A DNA stretch of 33,046 nucleotides from Deltaproteobacteria bacterium (lineage in GTDB: Bacteria; Myxococcota_A; Polyangia; JAAYKL01): NCBI GenBank assembly GCA_030595125.1, contig JAUVDV010000059.1:1-33046 (forward strand), written 5' to 3'. The notes under the pieces were generated by a model. That model saw only the letters and a program-made list of their open reading frames with translations, was not told the DNA's origin and searched no databases. This document shows positions 1 to 23,931 of this stretch, one piece after another. Position 1 is the stretch's first letter. Every line of letters starts with the position of its first letter. A program made the translations under genes and the position numbers.

Positions 1-2115
1 AGTGACACCGACAGTGATACCGACAGTGACACGGACACCGACACGGACACCGACAGTGACACCGACACCTTCACCGACACGGAAACCGGGTCGGACACGG
101 ATACGGTCACGGACACAAGTTGTATTCCGCAATCCTATCAGCAATGCGGCTCCGGCGGGGACGTGCACTGGTTCGACTCCTGTGACAACGAGGGAGCCGT
201 TGTGGACGACTGCGCAGATGTCAACGGCATGTGTGAGAACCTCACGCCCACGACCGCGCAGTGCGGCTGCATCAACCACTGGGCGGGTTCCTATTGCAAC
301 TACTGTCCGCCCAACTGGGATGCGACGGCCAACTGCAACGACTGCCTCCCCCACTGGGACATAACGACAGACTGCGGCACGTGCCTGGGTAACTGGGACA
401 TCACAACCGGTTGCACCTCCTGCATCGGCAACTGGGATCCCGCGGCAGATTGCGCCGCGTGCCTGGGCAACTGGGACATCACAACCGGCTGCAGCACCTG
501 CGAGAACCAATGGGTGGACATGGGCGATGATTGCGGCACCTGCCCGCCCAACTGGGATGCCGCTGCGGATTGCGATGCGTGCCTGGGCAACTGGGACATC
601 ACAACCGGTTGCGCCACCTGCGAGACCCACTGGGTGGACATGGGCGACGATTGCGGCACCTGCCCGCCGCACTGGGATGCCGCTGCCGATTGCAACGCGT
701 GCCTGAACCACTGGGTGGACATGGGCGACGATTGCGGCACCTGCCCGCCGCACTGGGATCCACTGGCGGACTGCAACGCGTGCGAAGGCAACTGGGATCC
801 TTCGGCGAACTGCCTGTATTGCCTGGCCCACTGGGATATTTCGGACAACTGCAACTCGTGCCTGGGCAACTGGGACCCGGCGACAAACTGCCTGTCTTGC
901 CTCAACTACTGGGTGGACGAGGGCAACGATTGCGGCACCTGTCTGATCGTCGATACCTGCGTCCCCGAAGTGCCTTCGTGCATGGCGGCCATGGTCAACG
1001 AGTCTCCGGGATACTGTAACGGAGAGGACGACGACTGCGACGGCGAGGTTGACGAGGGCTGTGTATGTACGGTTGGCCAGGTACAGCCGTGTTTCCTGGG
1101 CCCGCCCAACTTCAGGGATCAGGGAACCTGTGCCGATGGGAGTCAGCTCTGCCAGTCGTCCGGCGGGTTTGGGGTGTGGGGCCCGTGTGATGGAGGAATC
1201 TGGCCGCAGGCCGAGCAGTGCGACGACGCGGACAACAACTGCGACGGTTGCGACGACGAGGGCATGTGCTGCGATCCGTGGATCCTGTGCTCGTACGATC
1301 CGGGGACCATCCAGCCTTTCGCCGATCTCGACATCGACGGAACGGACATATACCTCGGCTACGGTGCCACCATGTGGACATGGGAGATGTCCGCCGGGCC
1401 GTGCGGGGATGTGCTCGGCAACCCGCCGTTTACCATGAACGGAACGATCACGACTGTTCTGTCGGGCTCCTCGGCAGATTTCCTGACCCTCAACTTCTCG
1501 CTCTCGGGAGAATATGAACTCACCCTGACCGTGGACACTCCCGCGGGCGAGCTCAGCTGTACGTGGATAATTCACGTGCAGGCCCCGGGCCTGAGAGTGG
1601 AACTCTGCTGGGACACCACCGGATCCGCCGACGTGGATCTGCACATGGGCAAGATCACCACTACCAGCGACTGGTTCAACCAGAACCCGGACACGGAGGC
1701 CGATTGCTTCTACGCCAACTGCAAGGTGAGCAGCTGGAACAGACCCGACTGGGGCTATCCCGATGTACTGGGCGATCCCAACCCGCGCCTGGATCTGGAC
1801 AACATCTCCTCGGTCGGCGTGCCGGAGAATATCAACCTGGACAACCCGGACGACGGCGATCAATTCAGGGTGCTCGTGCACTTCTACTCGGGCCCCTCGC
1901 CCGTCACATATCCGCTTGTCAACGTGTATTGCGACGGCGCGAGGCTCGCCACCTACGGCGAGGTTCCGCAGGTCGTGGGATTCGCAGAGACCTGGAAGGT
2001 CGTGGACGTGACCACCAACGTGGATTCCCTGGGCGATCTCACCTGTGTACTGGATCCAGTGCTCGACATCGGTGGCAACTACGTGCTCGACGACGACAGT
2101 CCCACCTGGCCCTGA
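1..2115 (+). CDS. Partial Cys/Trp-repeat surface protein with MopE-like and YfaP-like (DUF2135) domains
   Basis: The reading frame is open from base 1, so the 5' end lies outside the window; the GTG at 163 is internal. It starts in an Asp-(Ser/Thr) stalk, followed by about 16 short units around Asn/His-Trp-Asp with paired Cys (about 262-945). Next come two acidic Cys motifs of the MopE metal-binding type (around 1016-1065 and 1216-1270), such as CNGEDDDCDGEVDEGC. A PKD/Ig-like stretch follows. The last 180 residues resemble the YfaP/DUF2135 domain (WDTTGSADVDLHMG, then a PENINLDNPDDG-type motif). It is probably an outer-surface lipoprotein like its neighbours, but the signal peptide is not visible. 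The ligand is unknown. The coding call is very secure; domain names rest on motif recognition only. Confidence 0.9.
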   Translation, partial: SDTDSDTDSDTDTDTDTDSDTDTFTDTETGSDTDTVTDTSCIPQSYQQCGSGGDVHWFDSCDNEGAVVDDCADVNGMCENLTPTTAQCGCINHWAGSYCNYCPPNWDATANCNDCLPHWDITTDCGTCLGNWDITTGCTSCIGNWDPAADCAACLGNWDITTGCSTCENQWVDMGDDCGTCPPNWDAAADCDACLGNWDITTGCATCETHWVDMGDDCGTCPPHWDAAADCNACLNHWVDMGDDCGTCPPHWDPLADCNACEGNWDPSANCLYCLAHWDISDNCNSCLGNWDPATNCLSCLNYWVDEGNDCGTCLIVDTCVPEVPSCMAAMVNESPGYCNGEDDDCDGEVDEGCVCTVGQVQPCFLGPPNFRDQGTCADGSQLCQSSGGFGVWGPCDGGIWPQAEQCDDADNNCDGCDDEGMCCDPWILCSYDPGTIQPFADLDIDGTDIYLGYGATMWTWEMSAGPCGDVLGNPPFTMNGTITTVLSGSSADFLTLNFSLSGEYELTLTVDTPAGELSCTWIIHVQAPGLRVELCWDTTGSADVDLHMGKITTTSDWFNQNPDTEADCFYANCKVSSWNRPDWGYPDVLGDPNPRLDLDNISSVGVPENINLDNPDDGDQFRVLVHFYSGPSPVTYPLVNVYCDGARLATYGEVPQVVGFAETWKVVDVTTNVDSLGDLTCVLDPVLDIGGNYVLDDDSPTWP
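262..945 (+). repeat. Tandem Cys-Trp coding repeats
   Basis: About 16 units of roughly 16-17 residues (48-51 bp) encode C-x2-C-x2-(N/H/Q/Y)-W-(D/V)-x(4-5)-C. Two flavours alternate: NWDITTGC-like and HWVDMGDDCGTC-like. Several units are nearly identical at DNA level, for example those at 448-500 and 568-620, which indicates recent unit duplication or gene conversion. Confidence 0.85.
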
Positions 2116-2184: not shown

Positions 2185-2865
2185 ATGTCCCTCTATCGCA
2201 ACCCTGGGGAACGGGCCAGTGAGGCGGTCACCTTCAGATTGACAGTGAACGAGAAGCGCCTTCTCGATCACCTCGCCTTTCGCGCGGAGACAACCCTCAC
2301 TGACCTTTTCAGGGATCTTCTCGCGCAAAGAGCGCGGGAAATCGAAGTGGAGGAGCTTCCTCCCGAGCCCGTTCGCAGGAGGCCGGGGCGTCCCAGAAAA
2401 ACCCCGATTGAAACAAAAACGGCAGTCCCCGCGACGCCGCTCACACCTGTCAGTGAACCGGAGGAGGATGTGAACGCTCCCATGGCGACCTTCGGCGAGC
2501 TCGTCGAGGGTTTTCGTGGGCACTTCTCGGACAGGGCGGAAGGTACGCGCAAGGAACTGGACGAGGCCATCCGGTATCTGCGGGACAATACTGCCCTCAC
2601 TGCTCTTCTGCGCAGAAACATGCCGCTTTCGGATTTGACATCCGACAGGCTCGCCTCGGTTCGCGACGCCATGAAGAACATGGAGATGAGGTTTTCAAAG
2701 AGAAATCTGCACCTCACCTACCTGAGGATGATGCTCCAGTGGGCCATGCGGCAACCGGACGTCACATTAAATATTGACCCGAAGACGGACCTGGAAGCAT
2801 TTTCTATAAAGGAGATCTCAAACGCTTGGCCGGGCCCCCTTGGGACTGAACGGAGGTCGACATGA
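2185..2865 (+). CDS. RHH-like / AT-hook protein with integrase core-binding-like C-terminus
   Basis: A 226-residue protein. Residues 11-50 look like a ribbon-helix-helix type DNA-binding segment (VTFRLTVNEKRLLDHLAF). Residues 66-72 (RPGRPRK) form an AT-hook. A Pro/Thr linker leads to residues 101-195, which resemble the SAM-like core-binding domain of tyrosine recombinases (PLSDLTSDRLASVRDAM, then a helix with LQWAMRQ). No catalytic domain follows. The start is fixed by in-frame stops just upstream. No Shine-Dalgarno is visible before the ATG, so translation may be leaderless. The stop overlaps the next gene's start (ATGA, 2862-2865), implying coupling to the lipoprotein downstream. It is most likely a small DNA-binding regulator; the function is inferred. 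Confidence 0.75.
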   Translation: MSLYRNPGERASEAVTFRLTVNEKRLLDHLAFRAETTLTDLFRDLLAQRAREIEVEELPPEPVRRRPGRPRKTPIETKTAVPATPLTPVSEPEEDVNAPMATFGELVEGFRGHFSDRAEGTRKELDEAIRYLRDNTALTALLRRNMPLSDLTSDRLASVRDAMKNMEMRFSKRNLHLTYLRMMLQWAMRQPDVTLNIDPKTDLEAFSIKEISNAWPGPLGTERRST

Positions 2866-3563
2866 TCAGTTTAAAAGTCCGACATGGAATTTCAATTCTC
2901 GTCGTCATTCTCTCGACGTGCCTGGCCTCTTGCTGGATAGAACAGGCGGTAGTATGGGGCGGGCCGACCGATACCGATGCGGACACGGACACGGACGCGG
3001 ACTCTGATTCGGACACGGACGTGGACTCTGATTCGGACACGGACGCGGACACCGATTCCGACACGGATACCGGTCCGGTGGATTGCGAGGAGATCTCGGA
3101 TCACTGCTGCCACGAGGACTGTCCGTGCGCCGATGACGATTTTTCACAGTGCGTGCTCACCGAATGGAGCTGGGAGGACGGTATGCTCGGGGTCTGCAAG
3201 GAGCCGGTTCCGGACGGAGGCGCCTGCTGGGGGATCGCCGATTGCTGGCTTCCCGAGCATGTGTGCATGGACGTGTTCGTATGCGGGTGCGACGTCCTCT
3301 GCTATGAAGAGGATTACTATGGATACTGCGTTTCCGGCATCGACGCTTGTTGCGATTCGTCATCGGGAAACACGTGTCCGGAGGGATACTTCTGCATGCC
3401 CTTTGCCGACGGTTTTGACGTATGTCACGCTGAGTTCAACGACAATCTTCAGTGCTGGACCGACGACGACTGCGCCGGCGGCATGGGCACCTGCGAGGGC
3501 GCTTTTTTACACAGTTGCAACGAGTACGGTTTCTCGACCGTGGGGCATTGCGACTACGATTAG
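2862..3563 (+). CDS. Cys-rich lipoprotein with Asp-Thr/Ser stalk (paralogue of 15500-16186)
   Basis: A 233-residue protein. The signal peptide ends in the lipobox LASC with Cys24. An Asp-(Thr/Ser/Ala) stalk (about residues 36-70) precedes a domain rich in Cys (CCHEDCPC, CGCDVLC, CCDSSS). The start has a good ribosome binding site, GGAGGT at 2852-2857, and shares ATGA with the upstream regulator-like gene. The whole protein is homologous to 15500-16186, including the signal peptide. Compared with that copy it lacks two Cys near the C-terminus (His217 and Gly223 stand in their places). The domain is not one I can name. It is probably displayed on the outer membrane. It converges with the next gene, with only 4 bp between stops. 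Confidence 0.88.
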   Translation: MISLKVRHGISILVVILSTCLASCWIEQAVVWGGPTDTDADTDTDADSDSDTDVDSDSDTDADTDSDTDTGPVDCEEISDHCCHEDCPCADDDFSQCVLTEWSWEDGMLGVCKEPVPDGGACWGIADCWLPEHVCMDVFVCGCDVLCYEEDYYGYCVSGIDACCDSSSGNTCPEGYFCMPFADGFDVCHAEFNDNLQCWTDDDCAGGMGTCEGAFLHSCNEYGFSTVGHCDYD

Positions 3564-8218: not shown

Positions 8219-9127
8219 ATGCGATCGATACTTCTTCGCGTCACCGCCGCGATCGGGCTCGCCGCGCTCTTGGCGGCCTGCGGTCCGGCCGCTACACAGC
8301 AGGGCAAGACTACCGATCCGGGTGAAGGTTCGTCCGTCGGGGTGGCTTCGGGAGATGCCCTGGCCGAGCACGACCGGGCGGTCAAGCTCAAGAACAGCGG
8401 CGATCTCGACGAGGCCCTCGAGGCTGCCGACGCGGCGATCGAGATCCAGACCGACTTCGCCCGGGGCCACTTCACTCGTGGCTCGATCCTTCGCAAGCTC
8501 GAACGATACGAGGACGCGGCCGCGGCGTTCAAAACTGCTCGCGAGCACGATCCGCAGTACGCGATGGCCTGGTCGATGGAAGGCGCGATGCTTATTCGCG
8601 TGGAGCGGGAGGAAGAGGCTGTCGAGTCACTCAAGAAGGCGCTCGAACTCGAACCGGACGAGATGCAGAACTACCTCAATCTGGGCACCGCGCTTCGACG
8701 TCTCAAGCGGCTGGAGGAGGCAGTAGATCTGTACAAGACCGGCCTCGAGAAATCCCCCGAAGATCTGGATCTGTTGAGCAACCAGGCCGTGGCCCTGTCC
8801 AAACTGCGCCGATACGAGGAGGCGATCGTCCTGCTCGAAACCGCCATCGAGAAGGATCCGAAGCACGCCGAATTCCGCATCAACATGGCCGTGGCCCTGC
8901 GCAGCGCAAAACGGTTCGACGAGGCCGCGGCGCAATACGAGAAGGCTATCGAGCTCGGCGCCGTTGAATCCGGGCTGCTCTTCGACCTGGCCTACTGCTA
9001 CGAAAATATGGGCAAGAAGAAGAAGGCCATTGCAACCTACGAGAAGTACCTCGCCGAGATCGGCAACACCAACCCGAAGGCCCATGCGCGCGTGATGAAG
9101 ACGCTCAAACGCCTCCAGAGCAAGTAG
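8219..9127 (+). CDS. TPR-repeat lipoprotein
   Basis: A 302-residue protein. The ATG at 8219 follows GGGAGG and gives a lipoprotein signal ending LLAAC (Cys21). There is no Asp-Thr stalk. From about residue 55 to the end there are seven or so 34-residue TPR helices pairs (EHDRAVKLKNSGDLDEALEAA, AMLIRVEREEEAVESLKKAL, LGTALRRLKRLEEAVDLYK, NQAVALSKLRRYEEAIVLLE, NMAVALRSAKRFDEAAAQYE, LAYCYENMGKKKKAIATYE). TPR lipoproteins usually serve as assembly or scaffold factors in the periplasm. A separate promoter lies upstream, so it may be regulated apart from the sigma-fecR genes. Confidence 0.92.
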   Translation: MRSILLRVTAAIGLAALLAACGPAATQQGKTTDPGEGSSVGVASGDALAEHDRAVKLKNSGDLDEALEAADAAIEIQTDFARGHFTRGSILRKLERYEDAAAAFKTAREHDPQYAMAWSMEGAMLIRVEREEEAVESLKKALELEPDEMQNYLNLGTALRRLKRLEEAVDLYKTGLEKSPEDLDLLSNQAVALSKLRRYEEAIVLLETAIEKDPKHAEFRINMAVALRSAKRFDEAAAQYEKAIELGAVESGLLFDLAYCYENMGKKKKAIATYEKYLAEIGNTNPKAHARVMKTLKRLQSK

Positions 9128-9257
9128 TTTCACTCTCGGCCCAGAACGGGCCCGCTCTGGATCCAGAAGAATTTATTTGAGCCGTGAAAGGAGTCCATGG
9201 GTCTTCTCTTAAGAGGCCAGGCAATGAGCAGGCGTGACCAGAGGGAGAGGCGAAGGG
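9128..9257 (+). other. Intergenic region with short hairpin and a possible 22-residue leader ORF
   Basis: A GGCCC-AGAAC-GGGCC hairpin (9138-9152) has no T-tract. A short ORF at 9197-9265 (MGLLLRGQAMSRRDQRERRRDD) follows AAAGGAGTCC and ends inside the next gene's start region. It could be a coupling leader or chance. The bases 9244-9261 recur exactly before the remnant at 14489. Confidence 0.3.
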
Positions 9258-9833
9258 ATGATTGAGACGACAAGACCACTGACTATTTGGGCGATTGCGA
9301 CGTTGTTCGCGACTTGTTGGGCCGTGAGTTGCTCGGACGGCGAGGTGAGAACCGTTGGAGAAAGCGACTCCGATGCTGATTCCGACACTGACACGGATAC
9401 CGACACCGATTCTGATTCTGACACGGATGCCGACACCGATTCTGATTCTGACACTGACACCGACACGGATACCGATACTGATGCCGACACAGACGCCGAC
9501 TGTGACGGCGTGCTCGAGGGCGGAGCCTGCTGGTACCTGGGCGATCCGGGGCAGGATTGTACCACGGTGTGCAGCAGCCACGGTGGTTACGACGAAGCTA
9601 CAGTTTTCCACGCGGGCAGCGGCGGGACCATCGCCAACTGTACGGCGGTGCTGTCTTCGTTAGGGGCGGAAGGAGTTGCCAGTACCCAGGAGATCACCGG
9701 TTTTACATCCGGGGTAGGTTGCGTCTCGGCCGCGTGGACCATCCCAGCTATCTGGGCGTGGGTGAGTGATCCCGTCACTACCGAGAGCGGCGCCGATGCG
9801 GACTGCTCCCGCGCCTGTGCATGCGACAACTAA
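9258..9833 (+). CDS. Stalked lipoprotein with Cys-rich CWYLG domain, copy 1
   Basis: A 191-residue protein. The ATG at 9258 follows GGAGAGGCGAAGGG. The signal peptide ends WAVSC (Cys25). An Asp-(Thr/Ser/Ala) stalk runs to about residue 83. The C-terminal 110 residues form a Cys-rich domain: GVLEGGACWYLG, CTTVCSSHGGYD, GSGGTIANCTAVLSSLG, GVGCVSAAWTIP, CSRACACDN, with nine Cys counting the first. A second copy of the domain is at 12677-13306, which has Gly where this one has Cys in DCSRAC. I do not recognise the family; a disulphide-stabilised binding domain is a guess. The stop is followed at once by GGAGG and the next lipoprotein gene (11-bp gap). Confidence 0.9.
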   Translation: MIETTRPLTIWAIATLFATCWAVSCSDGEVRTVGESDSDADSDTDTDTDTDSDSDTDADTDSDSDTDTDTDTDTDADTDADCDGVLEGGACWYLGDPGQDCTTVCSSHGGYDEATVFHAGSGGTIANCTAVLSSLGAEGVASTQEITGFTSGVGCVSAAWTIPAIWAWVSDPVTTESGADADCSRACACDN

Positions 9834-9844
9834 GGAGGATTGAC

Positions 9845-11542
9845 GTGAAACTTGGCACTACTTTTTCTCACTTGCTTGGCTGTGCGGCGCTGGTTCTTAC
9901 ATGCTGGTCTTATTTGGGCTGCGAGGCGGCAAACACAACGGGCAACGGCCACACTGACGGGGACACAGACACTGACACCGACGGGGACACTGACACCGAC
10001 GGGGACTCCGACACCGACTCGGATAGCGACACCGACTACAATGGCCCGTCGATCCCGGAGACCTGTGAGGACGCAGCGCTGGCGAAGACGTCGGTGGGCT
10101 GCGAGTTCTTCACGGCAGATCTCGACAACTACGGAAGCAGCGACGATCAGGTCTACGGCATCGTGGTTTCCAACCCGCAGGCGGATCAGCAGGCCGAGGT
10201 AACGTTGGAAGACGGAAACACAGGCCAGATCTACCAGGAAACACTCGCACCCGGACAGCTCGAGGTCATCTATGTCACCTGTACCCCGATTTATGGTTCT
10301 TGCCTGTTGACGCCGCATGAGATCGAAGCACAGGGGGTTGGTTTTGCAAGAGGCTTCCGACTGTCTTCGGACGTGCCGGTCCTGGCCTACCAGTGGAATC
10401 CGTATGGGAACGAGTTCTGGACCAGCGACGCCTCTCTGCTCATTCCGGTAACCAGCCTGGATGGAACGTACATCGTGGCCGCATGGGACTTCGGGCCGTG
10501 GGGTGTGGGCAACTACGCCTCACAGGTTACGGTGATCGCGACGGAGGATGATACCAGCATCAGCTACATCCCGAAGACCGACGTGCCGAACTATGGCGGC
10601 GTGGGGCCGATGGCCGAGGGAGTGGTGTCAGCCCCAATTACGTTGAACGCGTTTGACGTCGTTACCATAGGTCCCGCCGAGCTCGACGACGATCTCACCG
10701 GCACGGTTGTCATGGCGGACAAGCCGGTGGTCGTTTTCGGCGGCCACTCCTGCGCTTTCGTACCCGGGAGCGCCCAGTCGTGCGACCACGTTGAAGAGCA
10801 GTTGCTGCCGCTCGCCGCCTGGGGCACCGCGACGGTGCTGGCTCGCCACGCGCCCCGGCCTACCTGCACGCCGCCCAACTCGGACGATCCGGTGCTGTGG
10901 AGGATCATCGCCGGGGCGGATGACATGCACGTCACCTTCGATCCACCGGCGCCGGATCCGGTCGGCGCCGAGCACCATTTCGTCGAGCAGGGTGAATTGC
11001 TCGAGTTCATGAGCACAGAGGATCATTACGCGGAAGGGATCCTGGACAATCCGCCCGATCCCGCTGAGCCCGAGGCCTCGTTCTTCGCCTACCAGATGAT
11101 GACCGGATGTATGCACTGCAACCCGAACGGCACAGGAGAATTCCCTCCCACATTCGAGGACCAGCCGGGCGACCCGATGATGCTTTTTTCACCACCTGCC
11201 GGCCAGTTCCTGGATCGGTATGTGTTCAACACAGATAACGTTTATGATTTCGACTACGATCATATCATCATTGTCCGCCCGATCGGCGCCGAGGTGACCC
11301 TGGACTGCCTCGGGGTTCTCCCGGATTCGTCCTTCGACCAGGTTGGAAGCAGCGAGTGGGAGGTAGGCAGGGTCTTCATCGACAACCCGGAAAATTCCAC
11401 CGGATGCCTGGATGGAACCCATTTGCTCACGTCCGTTGATCCGGTAGGGCTTTCGGTCGTAGGCGTGGCGCCGGCCAACTCCTACGGTTACGTGGGAGGG
11501 ATCGGCGTGAAGTCCATCAACCCCGACCCGATTATAGAGTGA
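9845..11542 (+). CDS. Stalked lipoprotein with IgGFc-binding-like domain
   Basis: A 565-residue protein. The GTG at 9845 has GGAGG 6 bp upstream and gives a lipoprotein signal ending YLGC (Cys26), followed by EAAN. A stalk of Asp-(Thr/Ser/Gly) runs to about residue 65. The rest matches the IgGFc-binding N-terminal domain seen in many Myxococcota surface proteins: YGIVVSNPQADQQAEVTLED, FRLSSDVPVLAYQWNPYG, SLLIPVTSLDGTYIVAAW, MADKPVVVFGGHSCAFVP, CDHVEEQLLPLAAWG. The family was named from an IgG Fc-binding mucus protein; the bacterial ligand is unknown. It shares its signal peptide and leader with 13318-14433, whose C-terminal domain is different. Confidence 0.93.
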   Translation: MKLGTTFSHLLGCAALVLTCWSYLGCEAANTTGNGHTDGDTDTDTDGDTDTDGDSDTDSDSDTDYNGPSIPETCEDAALAKTSVGCEFFTADLDNYGSSDDQVYGIVVSNPQADQQAEVTLEDGNTGQIYQETLAPGQLEVIYVTCTPIYGSCLLTPHEIEAQGVGFARGFRLSSDVPVLAYQWNPYGNEFWTSDASLLIPVTSLDGTYIVAAWDFGPWGVGNYASQVTVIATEDDTSISYIPKTDVPNYGGVGPMAEGVVSAPITLNAFDVVTIGPAELDDDLTGTVVMADKPVVVFGGHSCAFVPGSAQSCDHVEEQLLPLAAWGTATVLARHAPRPTCTPPNSDDPVLWRIIAGADDMHVTFDPPAPDPVGAEHHFVEQGELLEFMSTEDHYAEGILDNPPDPAEPEASFFAYQMMTGCMHCNPNGTGEFPPTFEDQPGDPMMLFSPPAGQFLDRYVFNTDNVYDFDYDHIIIVRPIGAEVTLDCLGVLPDSSFDQVGSSEWEVGRVFIDNPENSTGCLDGTHLLTSVDPVGLSVVGVAPANSYGYVGGIGVKSINPDPIIE

Positions 11543-11580: not shown

Positions 11581-12666
11581 ATGATAAAAAAAACACCTGA
11601 CATTGTTAGTATTCACGTGATTTGCCAGGCCGTTCTGATCATGGCCTGCTGGTTCCATCTGGGCTGCGAGGCTGCCGGCACACCGGCCAACGGCGACACC
11701 GACGGGGACTCCGACACCGACGGGGACACCGACACCGATTCGGATGGCGATAGCGACACCGATTCGGATAGTGACCTGGAAGATAACCCACAGAATATTC
11801 TGGTTATTGATTTTCGTTCCGGTTGGTGGTCGGGAGGTGGAGGAACCCTGTTTATGGATTTGAACGACGGTTGTATCGCGCTGGAAGTAATGGCGAATAC
11901 ACGTGATGATATCACTGTCGAATATCACCATTTTCAAAAAACCAAGAGAATCAACTGTCTTTACTTGCCGGGCGAGAACCCCCAGTGCAGTGAACATGAC
12001 GGCAGTTTCGTAGGTATTTCATATGAAGAACTCATAGGGTTTTTCGAAAATGATTGGGAAGACTATACACAGTTCTGGTTCCTTTCCGGATCAGACATGG
12101 ATCCGGACGACATCCAGGTAAGTGACCAGCTATTTGTCAATATTATTGATGATACGATGGAACTGTGCACTCCAATCCTCCTCGGCGCGGGAGATGGATT
12201 CATCGACCATGCAAATGTCATAAGCCAGGGGCTTGGAATGGGCGATACCATGACAACGGAGCTTGCCTCGCCGGGCTTCTTCATATTCATGCAAAATGGT
12301 TCGACGGAAACCTATATGGAGATGGACCAGGAGCTTCAACCGCATCTCTTGTTCGATGGTGTTACAGAAATTGCAGATACATTATCCAATTTCATCGATC
12401 AAACCGTACATGGCGATTCTCTCCTAGAGAGTACTTTCTACGAGGTTATTGCCCACGACACGGATGGGAGACCGGCGATAGCTGTAGGCGAGACCCCGTC
12501 GTCGGTGGGCGAAGAAGAGCCGCGCCCGATTATTCTGGATTCCGGCTGGCAACGTTTCTACTCTCTCGGGATCCCTGAATCCGAAAACGAAGGTACTCAG
12601 ATGTATCTTCAAAACCTCGTTATATATCTGTCCGAACACGGCTGCCACGCGCCTGTGGTGGAATAG
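11581..12666 (+). CDS. Stalked lipoprotein with unrecognised C-terminal domain
   Basis: A 361-residue protein. The ATG at 11581 follows GAGGGAAG. The signal peptide ends HLGC (Cys29) followed by EAAG, the same module as in the neighbours at 9845 and 13318. An Asp-(Thr/Ser/Gly) stalk follows to about residue 63. The C-terminal 300 residues have no motif I can place; stretches such as LGAGDGFIDHANVIS and RPIILDSGWQRFYSLG, and a final NLVIYLSEHG, are weakly reminiscent of Rossmann-like or glutamine-amidotransferase-like (ThuA-type) folds. The domain-coding DNA is visibly more AT-rich than its neighbours. The stop is 10 bp before the next ATG, so it probably belongs to the same transcript. Confidence 0.88.
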   Translation: MIKKTPDIVSIHVICQAVLIMACWFHLGCEAAGTPANGDTDGDSDTDGDTDTDSDGDSDTDSDSDLEDNPQNILVIDFRSGWWSGGGGTLFMDLNDGCIALEVMANTRDDITVEYHHFQKTKRINCLYLPGENPQCSEHDGSFVGISYEELIGFFENDWEDYTQFWFLSGSDMDPDDIQVSDQLFVNIIDDTMELCTPILLGAGDGFIDHANVISQGLGMGDTMTTELASPGFFIFMQNGSTETYMEMDQELQPHLLFDGVTEIADTLSNFIDQTVHGDSLLESTFYEVIAHDTDGRPAIAVGETPSSVGEEEPRPIILDSGWQRFYSLGIPESENEGTQMYLQNLVIYLSEHGCHAPVVE

Positions 12667-12676
12667 GGGATTATCA

Positions 12677-13306
12677 ATGACAATAAATTTACCCGGCGGA
12701 GCCAATTTATCACTAATCGCGTTACTTATTGCTGTCATGTTCGTCGGTTTTTCCTGCGCCGATAGTGTCGTCGATGCAAATGCCGACGACGACGCTTCCG
12801 GCGATACGGACAGCGACAGCGATTCGGACAGCGACAGCGATTCGGATAGCGACAGCGATTCGGATAGCGACTCAGACACGGATACTGATACTGAAACCGA
12901 TACGGACACTGATACTGGAACAGATACAGGCACTGATACTGGAGAAGATACGGGCACCGATACGGACACAGACTGTGCCGGCGTGCTCGAGGGCGGCGCC
13001 TGCTGGTACCTGGGAGTGCCGGGTCAGAATTGTACCACGGTGTGCAGCAGCCACGGTGGCTACGATACAGCGACGCTGACTTACGCCGGCAGCGGCGGGA
13101 CCATGGCCAACTGCACGGCGGTGCTGTCTTCACTGGGTGCGGGAGGAATTCCCTCCACTATAGAGATCACCGGCTATGCCTCCGGGGTGGGTTGCGTCTC
13201 GGCCGCGTGGACCATCCCCTCGATGTGGGCGTGGGTGAGCGATCCGGTTACCACCGAGGGGGGCGCCGACGCGGACGGTTCCCGCGCTTGCGCTTGCGAC
13301 AACTGA
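12677..13306 (+). CDS. Stalked lipoprotein with Cys-rich CWYLG domain, copy 2
   Basis: A 209-residue protein with a signal peptide ending GFSC (Cys27), unlike copy 1. The stalk has two parts: Asp-Ser repeats, then Thr-Asp-Thr-Gly repeats. The C-terminal domain is near-identical to copy 1 at 9258 (GVLEGGACWYLG to SRACACDN). One Cys in copy 1 is Gly201 here (ggt at 13277). As in copy 1, the stop is followed by GGAGG and a lipoprotein with an LGCEAA signal, so the two pairs form a segmental duplication. A 42-bp segment at 12961-13002 is repeated exactly at 14518-14559. Confidence 0.9.
   Translation: MTINLPGGANLSLIALLIAVMFVGFSCADSVVDANADDDASGDTDSDSDSDSDSDSDSDSDSDSDSDTDTDTETDTDTDTGTDTGTDTGEDTGTDTDTDCAGVLEGGACWYLGVPGQNCTTVCSSHGGYDTATLTYAGSGGTMANCTAVLSSLGAGGIPSTIEITGYASGVGCVSAAWTIPSMWAWVSDPVTTEGGADADGSRACACDN
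12809..12862 (+). repeat. 18-bp coding repeat in lipoprotein stalk
   Basis: GACAGCGACAGCGATTCG occurs twice (12809-12826, 12827-12844) and once with one change (12845-12862). It encodes Asp-Ser repeats in frame. Confidence 0.85.
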
Positions 13307-13317
13307 GGAGGACTAAC

Positions 13318-14433
13318 ATGAAACCAAACACTACATATTCCCACATGATTGGCTGGGCGGCCTTGGTCGCGGCTTGCTGGTTTCATTTGGGCTGCGAGGC
13401 TGCAGACAATTCCGTTAAATACAGCGATAGCGATACGGATACAGATTCCGATACCGACACGGACGCCGATACCGACACGGATGCCGACACGGATTCCGAC
13501 GGTGACTCGGACGCGGACGGGGATGGAGGACCTATCGAGATGGACTGCTCGAACTGTCCCGCTGTGGGACCGTCACTCGACAACATGGTCTGCTCCATCG
13601 ATCTGTGCGACGTTGGTGTAGTAGCCCAGCAGGAATATTCCAGCCCGATGCCCCTCGTCAACTGCACCCTCGAGGACACCTACGAGGCGGTGAATCACTT
13701 CGGTAGCGTGAGTAACGGCCTCGCGCCTTTGCTCAATAATTCGTACGCGCTCATGGCGAGCGGGTTGGCTACAGGCACGGCTCATACCACATCGTGCTGC
13801 GATGACATGCTGTCCGGTTTGCCAGATCCATGGAGTTCGGATGGATACGATACCTACGACGTGATCGAGTGGAAGCTCACATTGAAGGCGCCTGCGGAGG
13901 CCAAGTCGTTCAGGTTCAAGTATGTGTTCTTTTCCGAGGAGTACGATGAGTTCATTTCCACTGAGTTCAACGATAGGTTCTACGTCATCCTCGAGGCGAC
14001 AAGCACCGACGGGGGGCAACCGAAGGTCATCAACTTCACCGAGTGCCGCGAGCCGAGTGTCTATCACGATTTCATCTGCCAGGTGGGCGACACGGGCTGC
14101 GATGTGGGCGAAAAGTACTGCTACATAGCCATCAATACCTCGCTGTCCGACTGCTGCTGGTACAACGGATGCCCGGACGGGTACAGTTCCGCAGTGGGCA
14201 CCGACATCACCGGCACCGGTTACGAGTGCGTCGCGAATGAGTTGGACGACTGGGACATATATGGGTCGTCAACCGGCTGGCTTAAAACTGCGTGGCCGAT
14301 CGATGGCGACGAGGTGTTTGTTCTCACTTTCCACATTCACGACACAAGCGACGGGATTTTCGACTCGCAGGTCATCCTCGATTCTTTCGAGTTCCTGAAG
14401 GACGCAGAGCAGGGAACGACCCCAATCGAATAG
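13318..14433 (+). CDS. Stalked lipoprotein with choice-of-anchor-L domain
   Basis: A 371-residue protein. The ATG at 13318 has GGAGG at 13306-13310 and gives the signal peptide WFHLGC (Cys26) followed by EAAD; the longer frame upstream overlaps the previous gene. An Asp-(Thr/Ser/Ala) stalk runs to about residue 68. The rest matches the choice-of-anchor-L domain: LAPLLNNSYALMASGLATG, then FRFKYVFFSEEYDEFIS, EFNDRFYVILEATS, and a C-terminal FILTFHIHD-like stretch with VFVLTFHIHDTSDGIFDSQV. Such domains sit in surface or secreted proteins with varied anchors. Several Cys may form disulphides. Position in the tandem mirrors the IgGFc-like gene at 9845, with the same signal and leader but a different domain. 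Confidence 0.92.
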   Translation: MKPNTTYSHMIGWAALVAACWFHLGCEAADNSVKYSDSDTDTDSDTDTDADTDTDADTDSDGDSDADGDGGPIEMDCSNCPAVGPSLDNMVCSIDLCDVGVVAQQEYSSPMPLVNCTLEDTYEAVNHFGSVSNGLAPLLNNSYALMASGLATGTAHTTSCCDDMLSGLPDPWSSDGYDTYDVIEWKLTLKAPAEAKSFRFKYVFFSEEYDEFISTEFNDRFYVILEATSTDGGQPKVINFTECREPSVYHDFICQVGDTGCDVGEKYCYIAINTSLSDCCWYNGCPDGYSSAVGTDITGTGYECVANELDDWDIYGSSTGWLKTAWPIDGDEVFVLTFHIHDTSDGIFDSQVILDSFEFLKDAEQGTTPIE

Positions 14434-14474
14434 ATTCCGTCAAAGAGGCCTGAAGAAAACAGGTATTGGCAGAA

Positions 14475-14560
14475 GGAGAGGCGAAGGGATGACCACGGCG
14501 AGAAATCATAGCATACCTACGGACACAGACTGTGCCGGCGTGCTCGAGGGCGGCGCCTGA
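14475..14560 (+). pseudogene. Chimeric remnant of a CWYLG lipoprotein gene
   Basis: The bases 14475-14492 match 9244-9261 exactly, including ribosome binding site and start codon. The bases 14518-14559 match 12961-13002 exactly (end of stalk plus GVLEGGA). Between them is a short unrelated join. The result is a 23-codon ORF (ATG at 14489, TGA at 14558) encoding MTTARNHSIPTDTDCAGVLE and then GGA. The signal peptide, the stalk and nearly all of the domain are missing. It looks like the product of internal deletion or recombination between paralogues. It may still be translated, coupled to the gene at 14581. Confidence 0.8.
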
Positions 14561-14580
14561 TGACAAGAAAGGAAGAGGAA

Positions 14581-15499: not shown

Positions 15500-16186
15500 A
15501 TGAATATTGTAAGAGCCCGGTATGGCATTTCAATCCTCGTCGTTGTTCTCTCAGCGTGCCTGGGCGCGTGCTGGACGGAACAGCCGGTGTTATTGGTCGG
15601 GGCAACCGACGCCGACATGGACGCGGACACGGACACGGATTCCGACACGGACACGGATTCCGACACTGACGCGGACACCGATTCCGACACGGACACCGGC
15701 CCGGTGGATTGCGAGGAGATCCCCGATTATTGTTGCCACGAGGATTGCCCGTGCAACGATGACGATTTTTCACAGTGCGTGCTGACCTCATGGAGCTGGG
15801 AGGACGGTATGCTTGGTGTATGCAAGGAGCCGACTCCGGACGGAAACGTCTGCTGGATGGGAACCGATTGCTTCTCCGAGCATGTGTGCGCAGGCGCGTT
15901 TGTGTGCGGGTGCAACATGGACTGCATGGAGGAAGATTCCATGGGATACTGCGCTGCCGGAACCGGCGGTTGTTGCGACTCGTCGTCAGAAAATTCGTGT
16001 GATGAAGGTTACTTCTGCATGCCCTATGCTGACGGTTTTGACGTCTGTCACCATGTGCTCAACGATAATCTCCAGTGCTGGACCCACGACGATTGTGCCG
16101 GCGGCGCGGGCACCTGCGAGGGCGCTCAGCTGTGCAGTTGCAACACGAACTGCATCTCGGTCGTGGGGCACTGTGACTACGACTAG
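15500..16186 (+). CDS. Cys-rich lipoprotein with Asp-Thr/Ser stalk (paralogue of 2862-3563)
   Basis: A 228-residue protein. A GGAGG ribosome binding site lies just before the ATG. The signal peptide ends LGAC (Cys24) and begins like its paralogue (RYGISILVVVLSACLGAC against RHGISILVVILSTCLASC). The stalk covers about residues 36-66. The Cys-rich domain is almost co-linear with the other copy, with DCEEIPDYCCHEDCPC, VCGCNMDC, CCDSSSENSC and, at the end, QLCSCNTNC. The last motif keeps two Cys lost in the other copy. The function is unknown. It has its own promoter, and its stop is 16 bp from the convergent sahH stop. Confidence 0.9.
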   Translation: MNIVRARYGISILVVVLSACLGACWTEQPVLLVGATDADMDADTDTDSDTDTDSDTDADTDSDTDTGPVDCEEIPDYCCHEDCPCNDDDFSQCVLTSWSWEDGMLGVCKEPTPDGNVCWMGTDCFSEHVCAGAFVCGCNMDCMEEDSMGYCAAGTGGCCDSSSENSCDEGYFCMPYADGFDVCHHVLNDNLQCWTHDDCAGGAGTCEGAQLCSCNTNCISVVGHCDYD

Positions 16187-23260: not shown

Positions 23261-23539
23261 ATGACCGAGCAAACAACGATAACGGCGACAGTTCTTGTCA
23301 GATCCATCTCTGACGTCCTCAACCGCGTCTTGTACAGAGGCGAGCGATTTATAGTTCAGCGAGGAGGCAAGACAATTGCCAGGCTTGGACCCATCAAGCA
23401 GGCGCGGCCGATTTCGCTCGCCCAGTTGGCCAGTCATCTCGAGGGGATCGCGGTACCTGACAGGGGCTTTTTCGACGATCTGGAGCAAATCCAGTTGAAC
23501 CAACCGGATGAAGAAGAGATCTCGTGGTCCAGCTCATAG
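23261..23539 (+). CDS. Phd/YefM-like antitoxin
   Basis: A 92-residue protein. AGAGGG precedes the ATG. The N-terminal half follows the Phd/YefM pattern (VLVRSISDVLNRVLYRGERFIVQRGGKTIARLGPI), which dimerises and binds DNA. The C-terminal half is acidic and probably disordered (DDLEQIQLNQPDEEEIS), as expected of a toxin-wrapping tail. It overlaps the toxin gene by 16 bp. It should neutralise the PIN toxin and, with it, repress the operon through the palindrome at 23224-23240. Whether it is a Phd or another VapB class cannot be settled by eye. Confidence 0.8.
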   Translation: MTEQTTITATVLVRSISDVLNRVLYRGERFIVQRGGKTIARLGPIKQARPISLAQLASHLEGIAVPDRGFFDDLEQIQLNQPDEEEISWSSS

Positions 23540-23931
23540 ACACAAGCGTAATCATCGAGCTTGAGCGCAGGGGTATGACTGTAAATGAACTGGCGCGTGT
23601 CGCGCCGGACCAGCCGGTAGCTCTGGCCTCGATTACAGCTTCGGAGCTTCTCGTCGGTGTTCATCGGGCAAATACCCGGGTTCAAAAGACCAGACGAAGT
23701 TTGTTTGTGGAGAAGATCCTGGAGGTGGTTCCGGTTTTCCCCTTTGATCTCGCCGCCGCGAGAATACATGCGAAGCTTGGAGCTTTTCTGATGACCAAGG
23801 GAAAGCGGATCGGCGCTCACGACTTGATCATAGCGGCCACCGCGCTGGCCAATAACTGCTCTGTCCTTACGGGAAACGCAAGAGAGTTCAATAGAGTGCC
23901 CGACCTCGATGTGGTTGTTCCCGGCTGGTAG
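23524..23931 (+). CDS. vapC: VapC-type PIN-domain ribonuclease toxin
   Basis: A 135-residue protein. The start is a GTG inside the antitoxin gene, an overlap of 16 bp. The PIN fold is clear: Asp6 in MVQLIDTSVIIE, Glu41 in SITASELLVG, Asp100 in GAHDLIIAATA and Asn118 in TGNAREFNRV; these acidic residues bind magnesium. VapC toxins cut RNA (tRNA or rRNA) and halt translation when freed from the antitoxin. All catalytic residues are intact. The RNA target cannot be inferred. It ends 7 bp from the convergent ptb stop, next to the second copy of the 14-bp repeat. Confidence 0.92.
   Translation: MVQLIDTSVIIELERRGMTVNELARVAPDQPVALASITASELLVGVHRANTRVQKTRRSLFVEKILEVVPVFPFDLAAARIHAKLGAFLMTKGKRIGAHDLIIAATALANNCSVLTGNAREFNRVPDLDVVVPGW

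What the first reader, a model, noticed from the sequence alone, without database searches (positions are those of the whole stretch)
14475..14560. Chimeric mini-gene that records recombination between lipoprotein paralogues
An 18-bp exact match to the start region of the 9258 gene (9244-9261) and a 42-bp exact match to the stalk/domain join of the 12677 gene (12961-13002) lie 25 bp apart, in one 23-codon ORF. This is direct evidence that start regions and stalk/domain regions recombine here. The remnant lies directly before another lipoprotein gene, as if left behind by a domain replacement.
Basis: partly seen in the sequence, partly recalled or inferred. Interest (0 to 1): 0.6.

Follow-up and report, generated by a model that had tools for sequence, protein, structure and literature searches.

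The report
Gene scrap in lipoprotein-swapping locus
The 86-base stretch is most likely the broken leftover of a third copy of a small surface-lipoprotein gene, and it sits between two genes whose outer domains were joined to new membrane-targeting front ends, which suggests that this bacterium reshuffles the parts of its stalked surface proteins.

Summary
In detail: 14475-14492 equals 9244-9261 (18 bp) and 14518-14559 equals 12961-13002 (42 bp), in order, 25 bp apart, in a 23-codon ORF. Nothing else in the 5.4-Mb genome matches. Best reading: the decayed remnant of a third CWYLG lipoprotein gene that kept its ribosome site, start and stalk/domain join but lost signal peptide, stalk and most of the domain. 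Neither available same-genus genome has it or an intact third copy; the syntenic relative also lacks both flanking genes at this locus.

The scrap alone is weak proof of recombination; its neighbourhood is stronger. Gene 13318 carries the signal peptide of the resident IgGFc-type gene joined, at the lipobox, to an ectodomain that in both relatives lies at another locus behind a different signal peptide. Gene 14581 is also a relocated ectodomain with a different front end. The two intact CWYLG copies share a short gene-conversion-like tract. Genome-wide, 6 of 35 ectodomain pairs (>=70% identity) have unrelated signal peptides, and 77 within-genome pairs have similar signal peptides but unrelated ectodomains. 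This resembles 'terminal reassortment' of effectors, here in aspartate-stalked lipoproteins. Scrap: ordinary. Shuffling: worth following.

The parts
14443..14505 (+). 5' part of the remnant: leader, ribosome-binding site (AAGGAG), ATG and first codons of a copy-1-type CWYLG lipoprotein gene
   Evidence: 22/23 to 9239-9261; collinear AAGAGGCC/CAGG upstream and CACrGyGAGAAA downstream against window and relative copy 1, suggestive only
14489..14560 (+). 23-codon ORF of the remnant, MTTARNHSIPTDTDCAGVLEGGA*; its stop overlaps the ATG at 14560 (TGATG)
14518..14562 (+). 3' part of the remnant: end of stalk and first residues of the CWYLG domain, 44/45 identical to copy 2
9258..9833 (+). intact CWYLG lipoprotein gene, copy 1 (start type A)
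   Evidence: orthologue in G002
12677..13306 (+). intact CWYLG lipoprotein gene, copy 2 (start type B); domain 84% identical to copy 1
   Evidence: orthologue in G002
9845..11542 (+). IgGFc_binding stalked lipoprotein; its signal-peptide type is reused by 13318
   Evidence: PF17517 E=1.1e-61
13318..14433 (+). chimeric stalked lipoprotein: IgGFc-type signal peptide up to the lipobox (near 13394), then an ectodomain that relatives carry at another locus
   Evidence: left of lipobox 75/96 to the relative's IgGFc signal peptide vs 41/96 to its own ectodomain orthologue; right of it 12/30 vs 21/30; ectodomain 86%/83% to G002:C319/G001:C292
14581..15378 (+). stalked lipoprotein directly after the remnant (ORF also open from ATG 14560); ectodomain at another locus, behind another signal peptide, in both relatives
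   Evidence: 71-72% to G002:C209 and G001:C33; signal peptides differ
11581..12666 (+). stalked lipoprotein with IgGFc-type signal peptide; ectodomain has no match in the two same-genus genomes; gene absent from the syntenic relative
   Evidence: (D11)

Best explanation
The stretch is the decayed remnant of a third CWYLG lipoprotein gene, in a locus where stalked lipoprotein genes are built and rebuilt by joining front modules (leader, start, signal peptide, lipobox) to different ectodomains. The third copy had a copy-1-type front and a copy-2-type stalk/domain join. An in-frame internal deletion removed its signal peptide and almost all of the stalk. A second break just after ...GGA(C) removed the rest of the domain, perhaps when the present neighbour 14581 was placed behind it. 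Shown: both fragments, their order, frame and uniqueness; absence from the syntenic relative; the chimeric 13318; the relocated 14581 ectodomain; genome-wide uncoupling of signal peptide and ectodomain. Inferred: that a full third gene once existed, the order of events, and that the repetitive aspartate-codon stalk and the short lipobox sequence served as the places of exchange. The scrap itself probably has no function.
For: Fragments, frame and uniqueness. Position directly before a larger lipoprotein gene, as copy 1 before 9845 and copy 2 before 13318. The syntenic relative G002 (JAUXHN010000045.1) goes from copy 2 straight to the 15500 gene, without 13318, remnant or 14581. Ectodomains of 13318 and 14581 lie elsewhere in both relatives with different signal peptides. 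Breakpoint of 13318 at the lipobox: 75/96 vs 41/96 to the left, 12/30 vs 21/30 to the right. Homology of 13318 to its relatives ends a few bases after the stop, where copy-1-type leader begins. Paralogue-type sites in copies 1/2: run of 8, permutation p=0.0008. Genome-wide uncoupling: 6 of 35 pairs with ectodomain >=70% have background-level signal-peptide DNA; 77 within-genome pairs have signal-peptide DNA >=70% but unrelated ectodomains, vs 0 of 15,000 in codon-shuffled controls.
Against: No genome here contains an intact third copy, so the parent gene is inferred. About 12 bp between the two fragments is unassigned. The extension of the 5' homology beyond the 23-mer is only suggestive alone. 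The three combinations seen can be explained without exchange between the two residents. Upstream leaders of within-genome pairs sharing a signal peptide are mostly not similar (2 of 32 above the 99th percentile), so the shared segment is short and part of that similarity could be older divergence or constraint.
Confidence: 0.62

Rival explanations
1. No full third gene existed: two short pieces of the resident genes were copied separately into the junction (filler DNA from end joining or template switching) when 13318 or 14581 was inserted.
For: Both pieces are short and the junction lies between two genes that the relative lacks at this locus; the breaks show no clear homology.
Against: The pieces are in gene order, orientation and reading frame, with ribosome site and start intact; the 5' piece resembles the relative's copy 1 beyond ATGA better than the window's own copy, suggesting an older gene rather than a fresh patch.
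Confidence: 0.2
2. The remnant is used: the 23-codon ORF with its good ribosome site is a leader cistron that feeds ribosomes into the downstream gene through the TGATG overlap.
For: AAGGAG about 10 nt before the ATG; the stop overlaps an in-frame ATG of the downstream ORF.
Against: Absent from both same-genus genomes; 14581 appears to have its own ribosome site (AAAGGA, read from the sequence); no conservation could be measured.
Confidence: 0.1
3. The join is an assembly error in a fragmented draft genome.
For: The genome is in 203 contigs and the locus is full of repeats.
Against: The pieces are bounded by unique sequence, the longest shared word is 42 bp, and the 5' piece is not identical to either resident beyond 18 bp.
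Confidence: 0.05

Closest known systems
Terminal reassortment of type III effectors (Stavrinides, Ma and Guttman 2006, cited in PMC5895054; original text not held)
   Same: Front parts carrying start and secretion signal are joined to unrelated C-terminal parts; broken leftovers are expected by-products (from general knowledge).
   Different: Here the front part is a lipoprotein signal peptide ending at a lipobox, followed by an aspartate-rich stalk; the genes encode surface-type lipoproteins, not injected effectors.
Crinkler (CRN) effectors of Phytophthora sojae (PMC3726527)
   Same: Large secreted family expanded by duplication and fragment recombination, with pseudogenes.
   Different: Eukaryotic (oomycete) secreted effectors; no lipobox and no repeat stalk.
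Sdr proteins of staphylococci (serine-aspartate repeats; PMC3324548)
   Same: Surface proteins with repetitive aspartate dipeptide stalks whose DNA is mutation-prone.
   Different: There the stalk lies next to the C-terminal wall anchor and mainly its length varies (general knowledge); here the stalk follows an N-terminal lipobox and whole ectodomains are exchanged.

Membership tests
CWYLG lipoprotein family (copies 9258 and 12677) | start region and ribosome site of copy 1 | tested here: met
   22/23 at 14470-14492
CWYLG lipoprotein family (copies 9258 and 12677) | stalk/domain join in frame | tested here: met
   44/45 to copy 2, same reading frame
CWYLG lipoprotein family (copies 9258 and 12677) | signal peptide with lipobox, aspartate stalk, complete domain | tested here: not met
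   absent from the 23-codon ORF: it is a fragment, not a working member
Terminal reassortment | same front attached to unrelated C-terminal parts | tested here: met
   77 pairs in G000 with signal-peptide DNA >=70% and unrelated ectodomains; 0 of 15,000 shuffled controls
Terminal reassortment | same C-terminal part behind different fronts | tested here: met
   6 of 35 pairs with ectodomain >=70%
Terminal reassortment | proteins are type III effectors (as in the original description) | not tested
   the genes encode lipobox-type signal peptides, so effector membership is not claimed; only that it works alike
Programmed antigenic variation cassettes | one expression site with silent donor cassettes switching within a population | not testable with these tools
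   no read data; no silent cassette array matching the remnant seen in the own genome

The most novel reading that the evidence does not exclude
Stalked lipoproteins in this lineage form an open, genome-wide reassortment system: aspartate-codon stalks and the lipobox act as universal joints at which ectodomains are moved between loci and recapped with resident signal peptides, fast enough to distinguish genomes of one genus; the scrap is a by-product.
Probability: 0.4. Interest if true: 0.65.

Novelty: new variant of a known kind. Interest (0 to 1): 0.42.

Why it matters
If correct, bacteria with hundreds of stalked surface lipoproteins can try new outer domains without evolving new export signals, because any ectodomain that lands behind a stalk or lipobox is exported at once. 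The lipobox breakpoint of gene 13318 and the remnant beside it give a concrete place to look for this in populations.

Tried and rejected
Viral contigs: no relative of the CWYLG protein. Pfam: no family at curated cut-off for the CWYLG domain. Structure of the domain from five sequences: mean pLDDT 47, not interpretable, so no fold search was made. Source of the 14581 signal peptide: only weak, largely stalk-driven matches. Rejected: a conserved regulatory leader, because relatives lack it. A plain argument from the three observed start/domain combinations for recombination between the two residents was considered and found insufficient.

Full report
What is there. Together they form the front end and the stalk/domain join of a CWYLG lipoprotein gene, in the right order, orientation and frame, but without signal peptide, stalk or most of the domain. 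In the 5.39-Mb genome no other place resembles the element apart from the two resident genes, and the CWYLG domain itself occurs clearly only three times: the two copies here and one distant copy on contig C88.

Relatives. Two other genomes of the same genus are held. G002 (contig JAUXHN010000045.1, a deltaproteobacterial metagenome-assembled genome) has the same locus. Its order is TPR gene, an extra stalked lipoprotein gene, copy 1, IgGFc-type gene, copy 2, 15500-type gene, a radical-SAM-like gene, and then the adenosylhomocysteinase-like gene onwards (TPR, radical-SAM and adenosylhomocysteinase are names by appearance, untested). It lacks window genes 11581, 13318 and 14581 at this locus, and the remnant. 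G001 has only the distant C88-type copy.

The neighbours. The ectodomain of 13318 is 86% and 83% identical to genes on G002:C319 and G001:C292. Those two loci agree with each other in gene order and in signal peptide (MNAFTN.../MNVFTD...). In the window the same ectodomain carries the IgGFc-type signal peptide. Over 96 bases ending at the lipobox it matches the relative's IgGFc gene at 75 positions but its own ectodomain orthologue at only 41; over the next 30 bases the order reverses, 12 against 21. The breakpoint therefore lies in or next to the lipobox sequence GGGCTGCGAGGC. Its similarity to the relatives ends a few bases after the stop codon, where copy-1-type leader sequence begins. The ectodomain of 14581 likewise lies elsewhere in both relatives (71-72%), behind a signal peptide they share and the window does not. 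So the remnant sits between two relocated ectodomains.

Copies 1 and 2. With the relative's copies as reference, 21 informative sites in the domain group by orthology and 12 by genome; none support the third pairing. Eight genome-type sites are consecutive (permutation p=0.0008), as expected for a short conversion tract between the paralogues. Selection on a few neighbouring residues could also produce this.

Genome-wide. In the stretches fetched, 290 stalked lipoproteins were recognised (178 in G000 and 112 in G002). Of 46 reciprocal-best ectodomain pairs between the genomes, 35 have at least 70% identity, and in 6 of these the signal-peptide DNA is no more alike than in random pairs, while most others keep 0.7-0.97. 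Some of these may be paralogues, since the fetch was incomplete. For the pair L155/L227 the identity starts at the lipobox, as in 13318; in others it starts only in the stalk. Conversely, 77 pairs in G000 share at least 70% signal-peptide DNA but have unrelated ectodomains, against 0 of 15,000 codon-shuffled comparisons. A family around MRYLLLM.LATVLVC is the most widespread.

The scrap as evidence. Calling the copy-1 start A, the copy-2 start B and the two domain types 1 and 2, the locus shows A1, B2 and A2 (the scrap). These three could arise if A2 were the older form and copy 2 later changed its start, so the scrap does not by itself prove exchange between the residents. Its domain piece is closest to the window's copy 2 (44/45; the relative's copy 2 is 93%), while its first codons resemble the relative's copy 1 more than the window's, so its age is uncertain.

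Interpretation. The simplest account is that stalks, which are long sequences shared by hundreds of genes, and the short lipobox serve as joints at which fronts and ectodomains are exchanged, and that the 86-bp element is debris of that process from a third CWYLG gene. The exchange pattern is shown by sequence; the mechanism and the time order are inferred.

Comparison. The nearest known pattern is terminal reassortment of type III effectors (named in PMC5895054) and fragment recombination in Crinklers (PMC3726527). Staphylococcal Sdr proteins share aspartate-dipeptide stalks (PMC3324548). Searches for stalk or aspartate-rich lipoproteins in the myxobacterial literature found nothing on this; most subscription papers are not in that library.

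Noticed in passing
window 9085-9237; L073 (reverse strand): In G002 about 150 bp (3' end of the TPR gene plus leader) is present twice, flanking an extra stalked lipoprotein gene that the window lacks: gain or loss of a gene between direct repeats.
   Followed up: partly
window 2862-3563 and 15500-16186: Two homologous stalked lipoprotein genes 12.6 kb apart, alike in signal peptide and domain (77-83% DNA identity): plain duplicates, unlike the shuffled genes.
   Followed up: no
window 163-2115: ORF with many 13-residue repeats of the type C..CLGNWD...(N/D)C.
   Followed up: no
window 23261-23931: Two overlapping short ORFs that look like an antitoxin and PIN-domain toxin pair (by appearance, untested).
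   Followed up: no
G003 and G007: The CWYLG domain is multi-copy in other genera of the family (13 and 9 matches), partly inside very large ORFs, and the window copies match no Pfam family at its cut-off.
   Followed up: no
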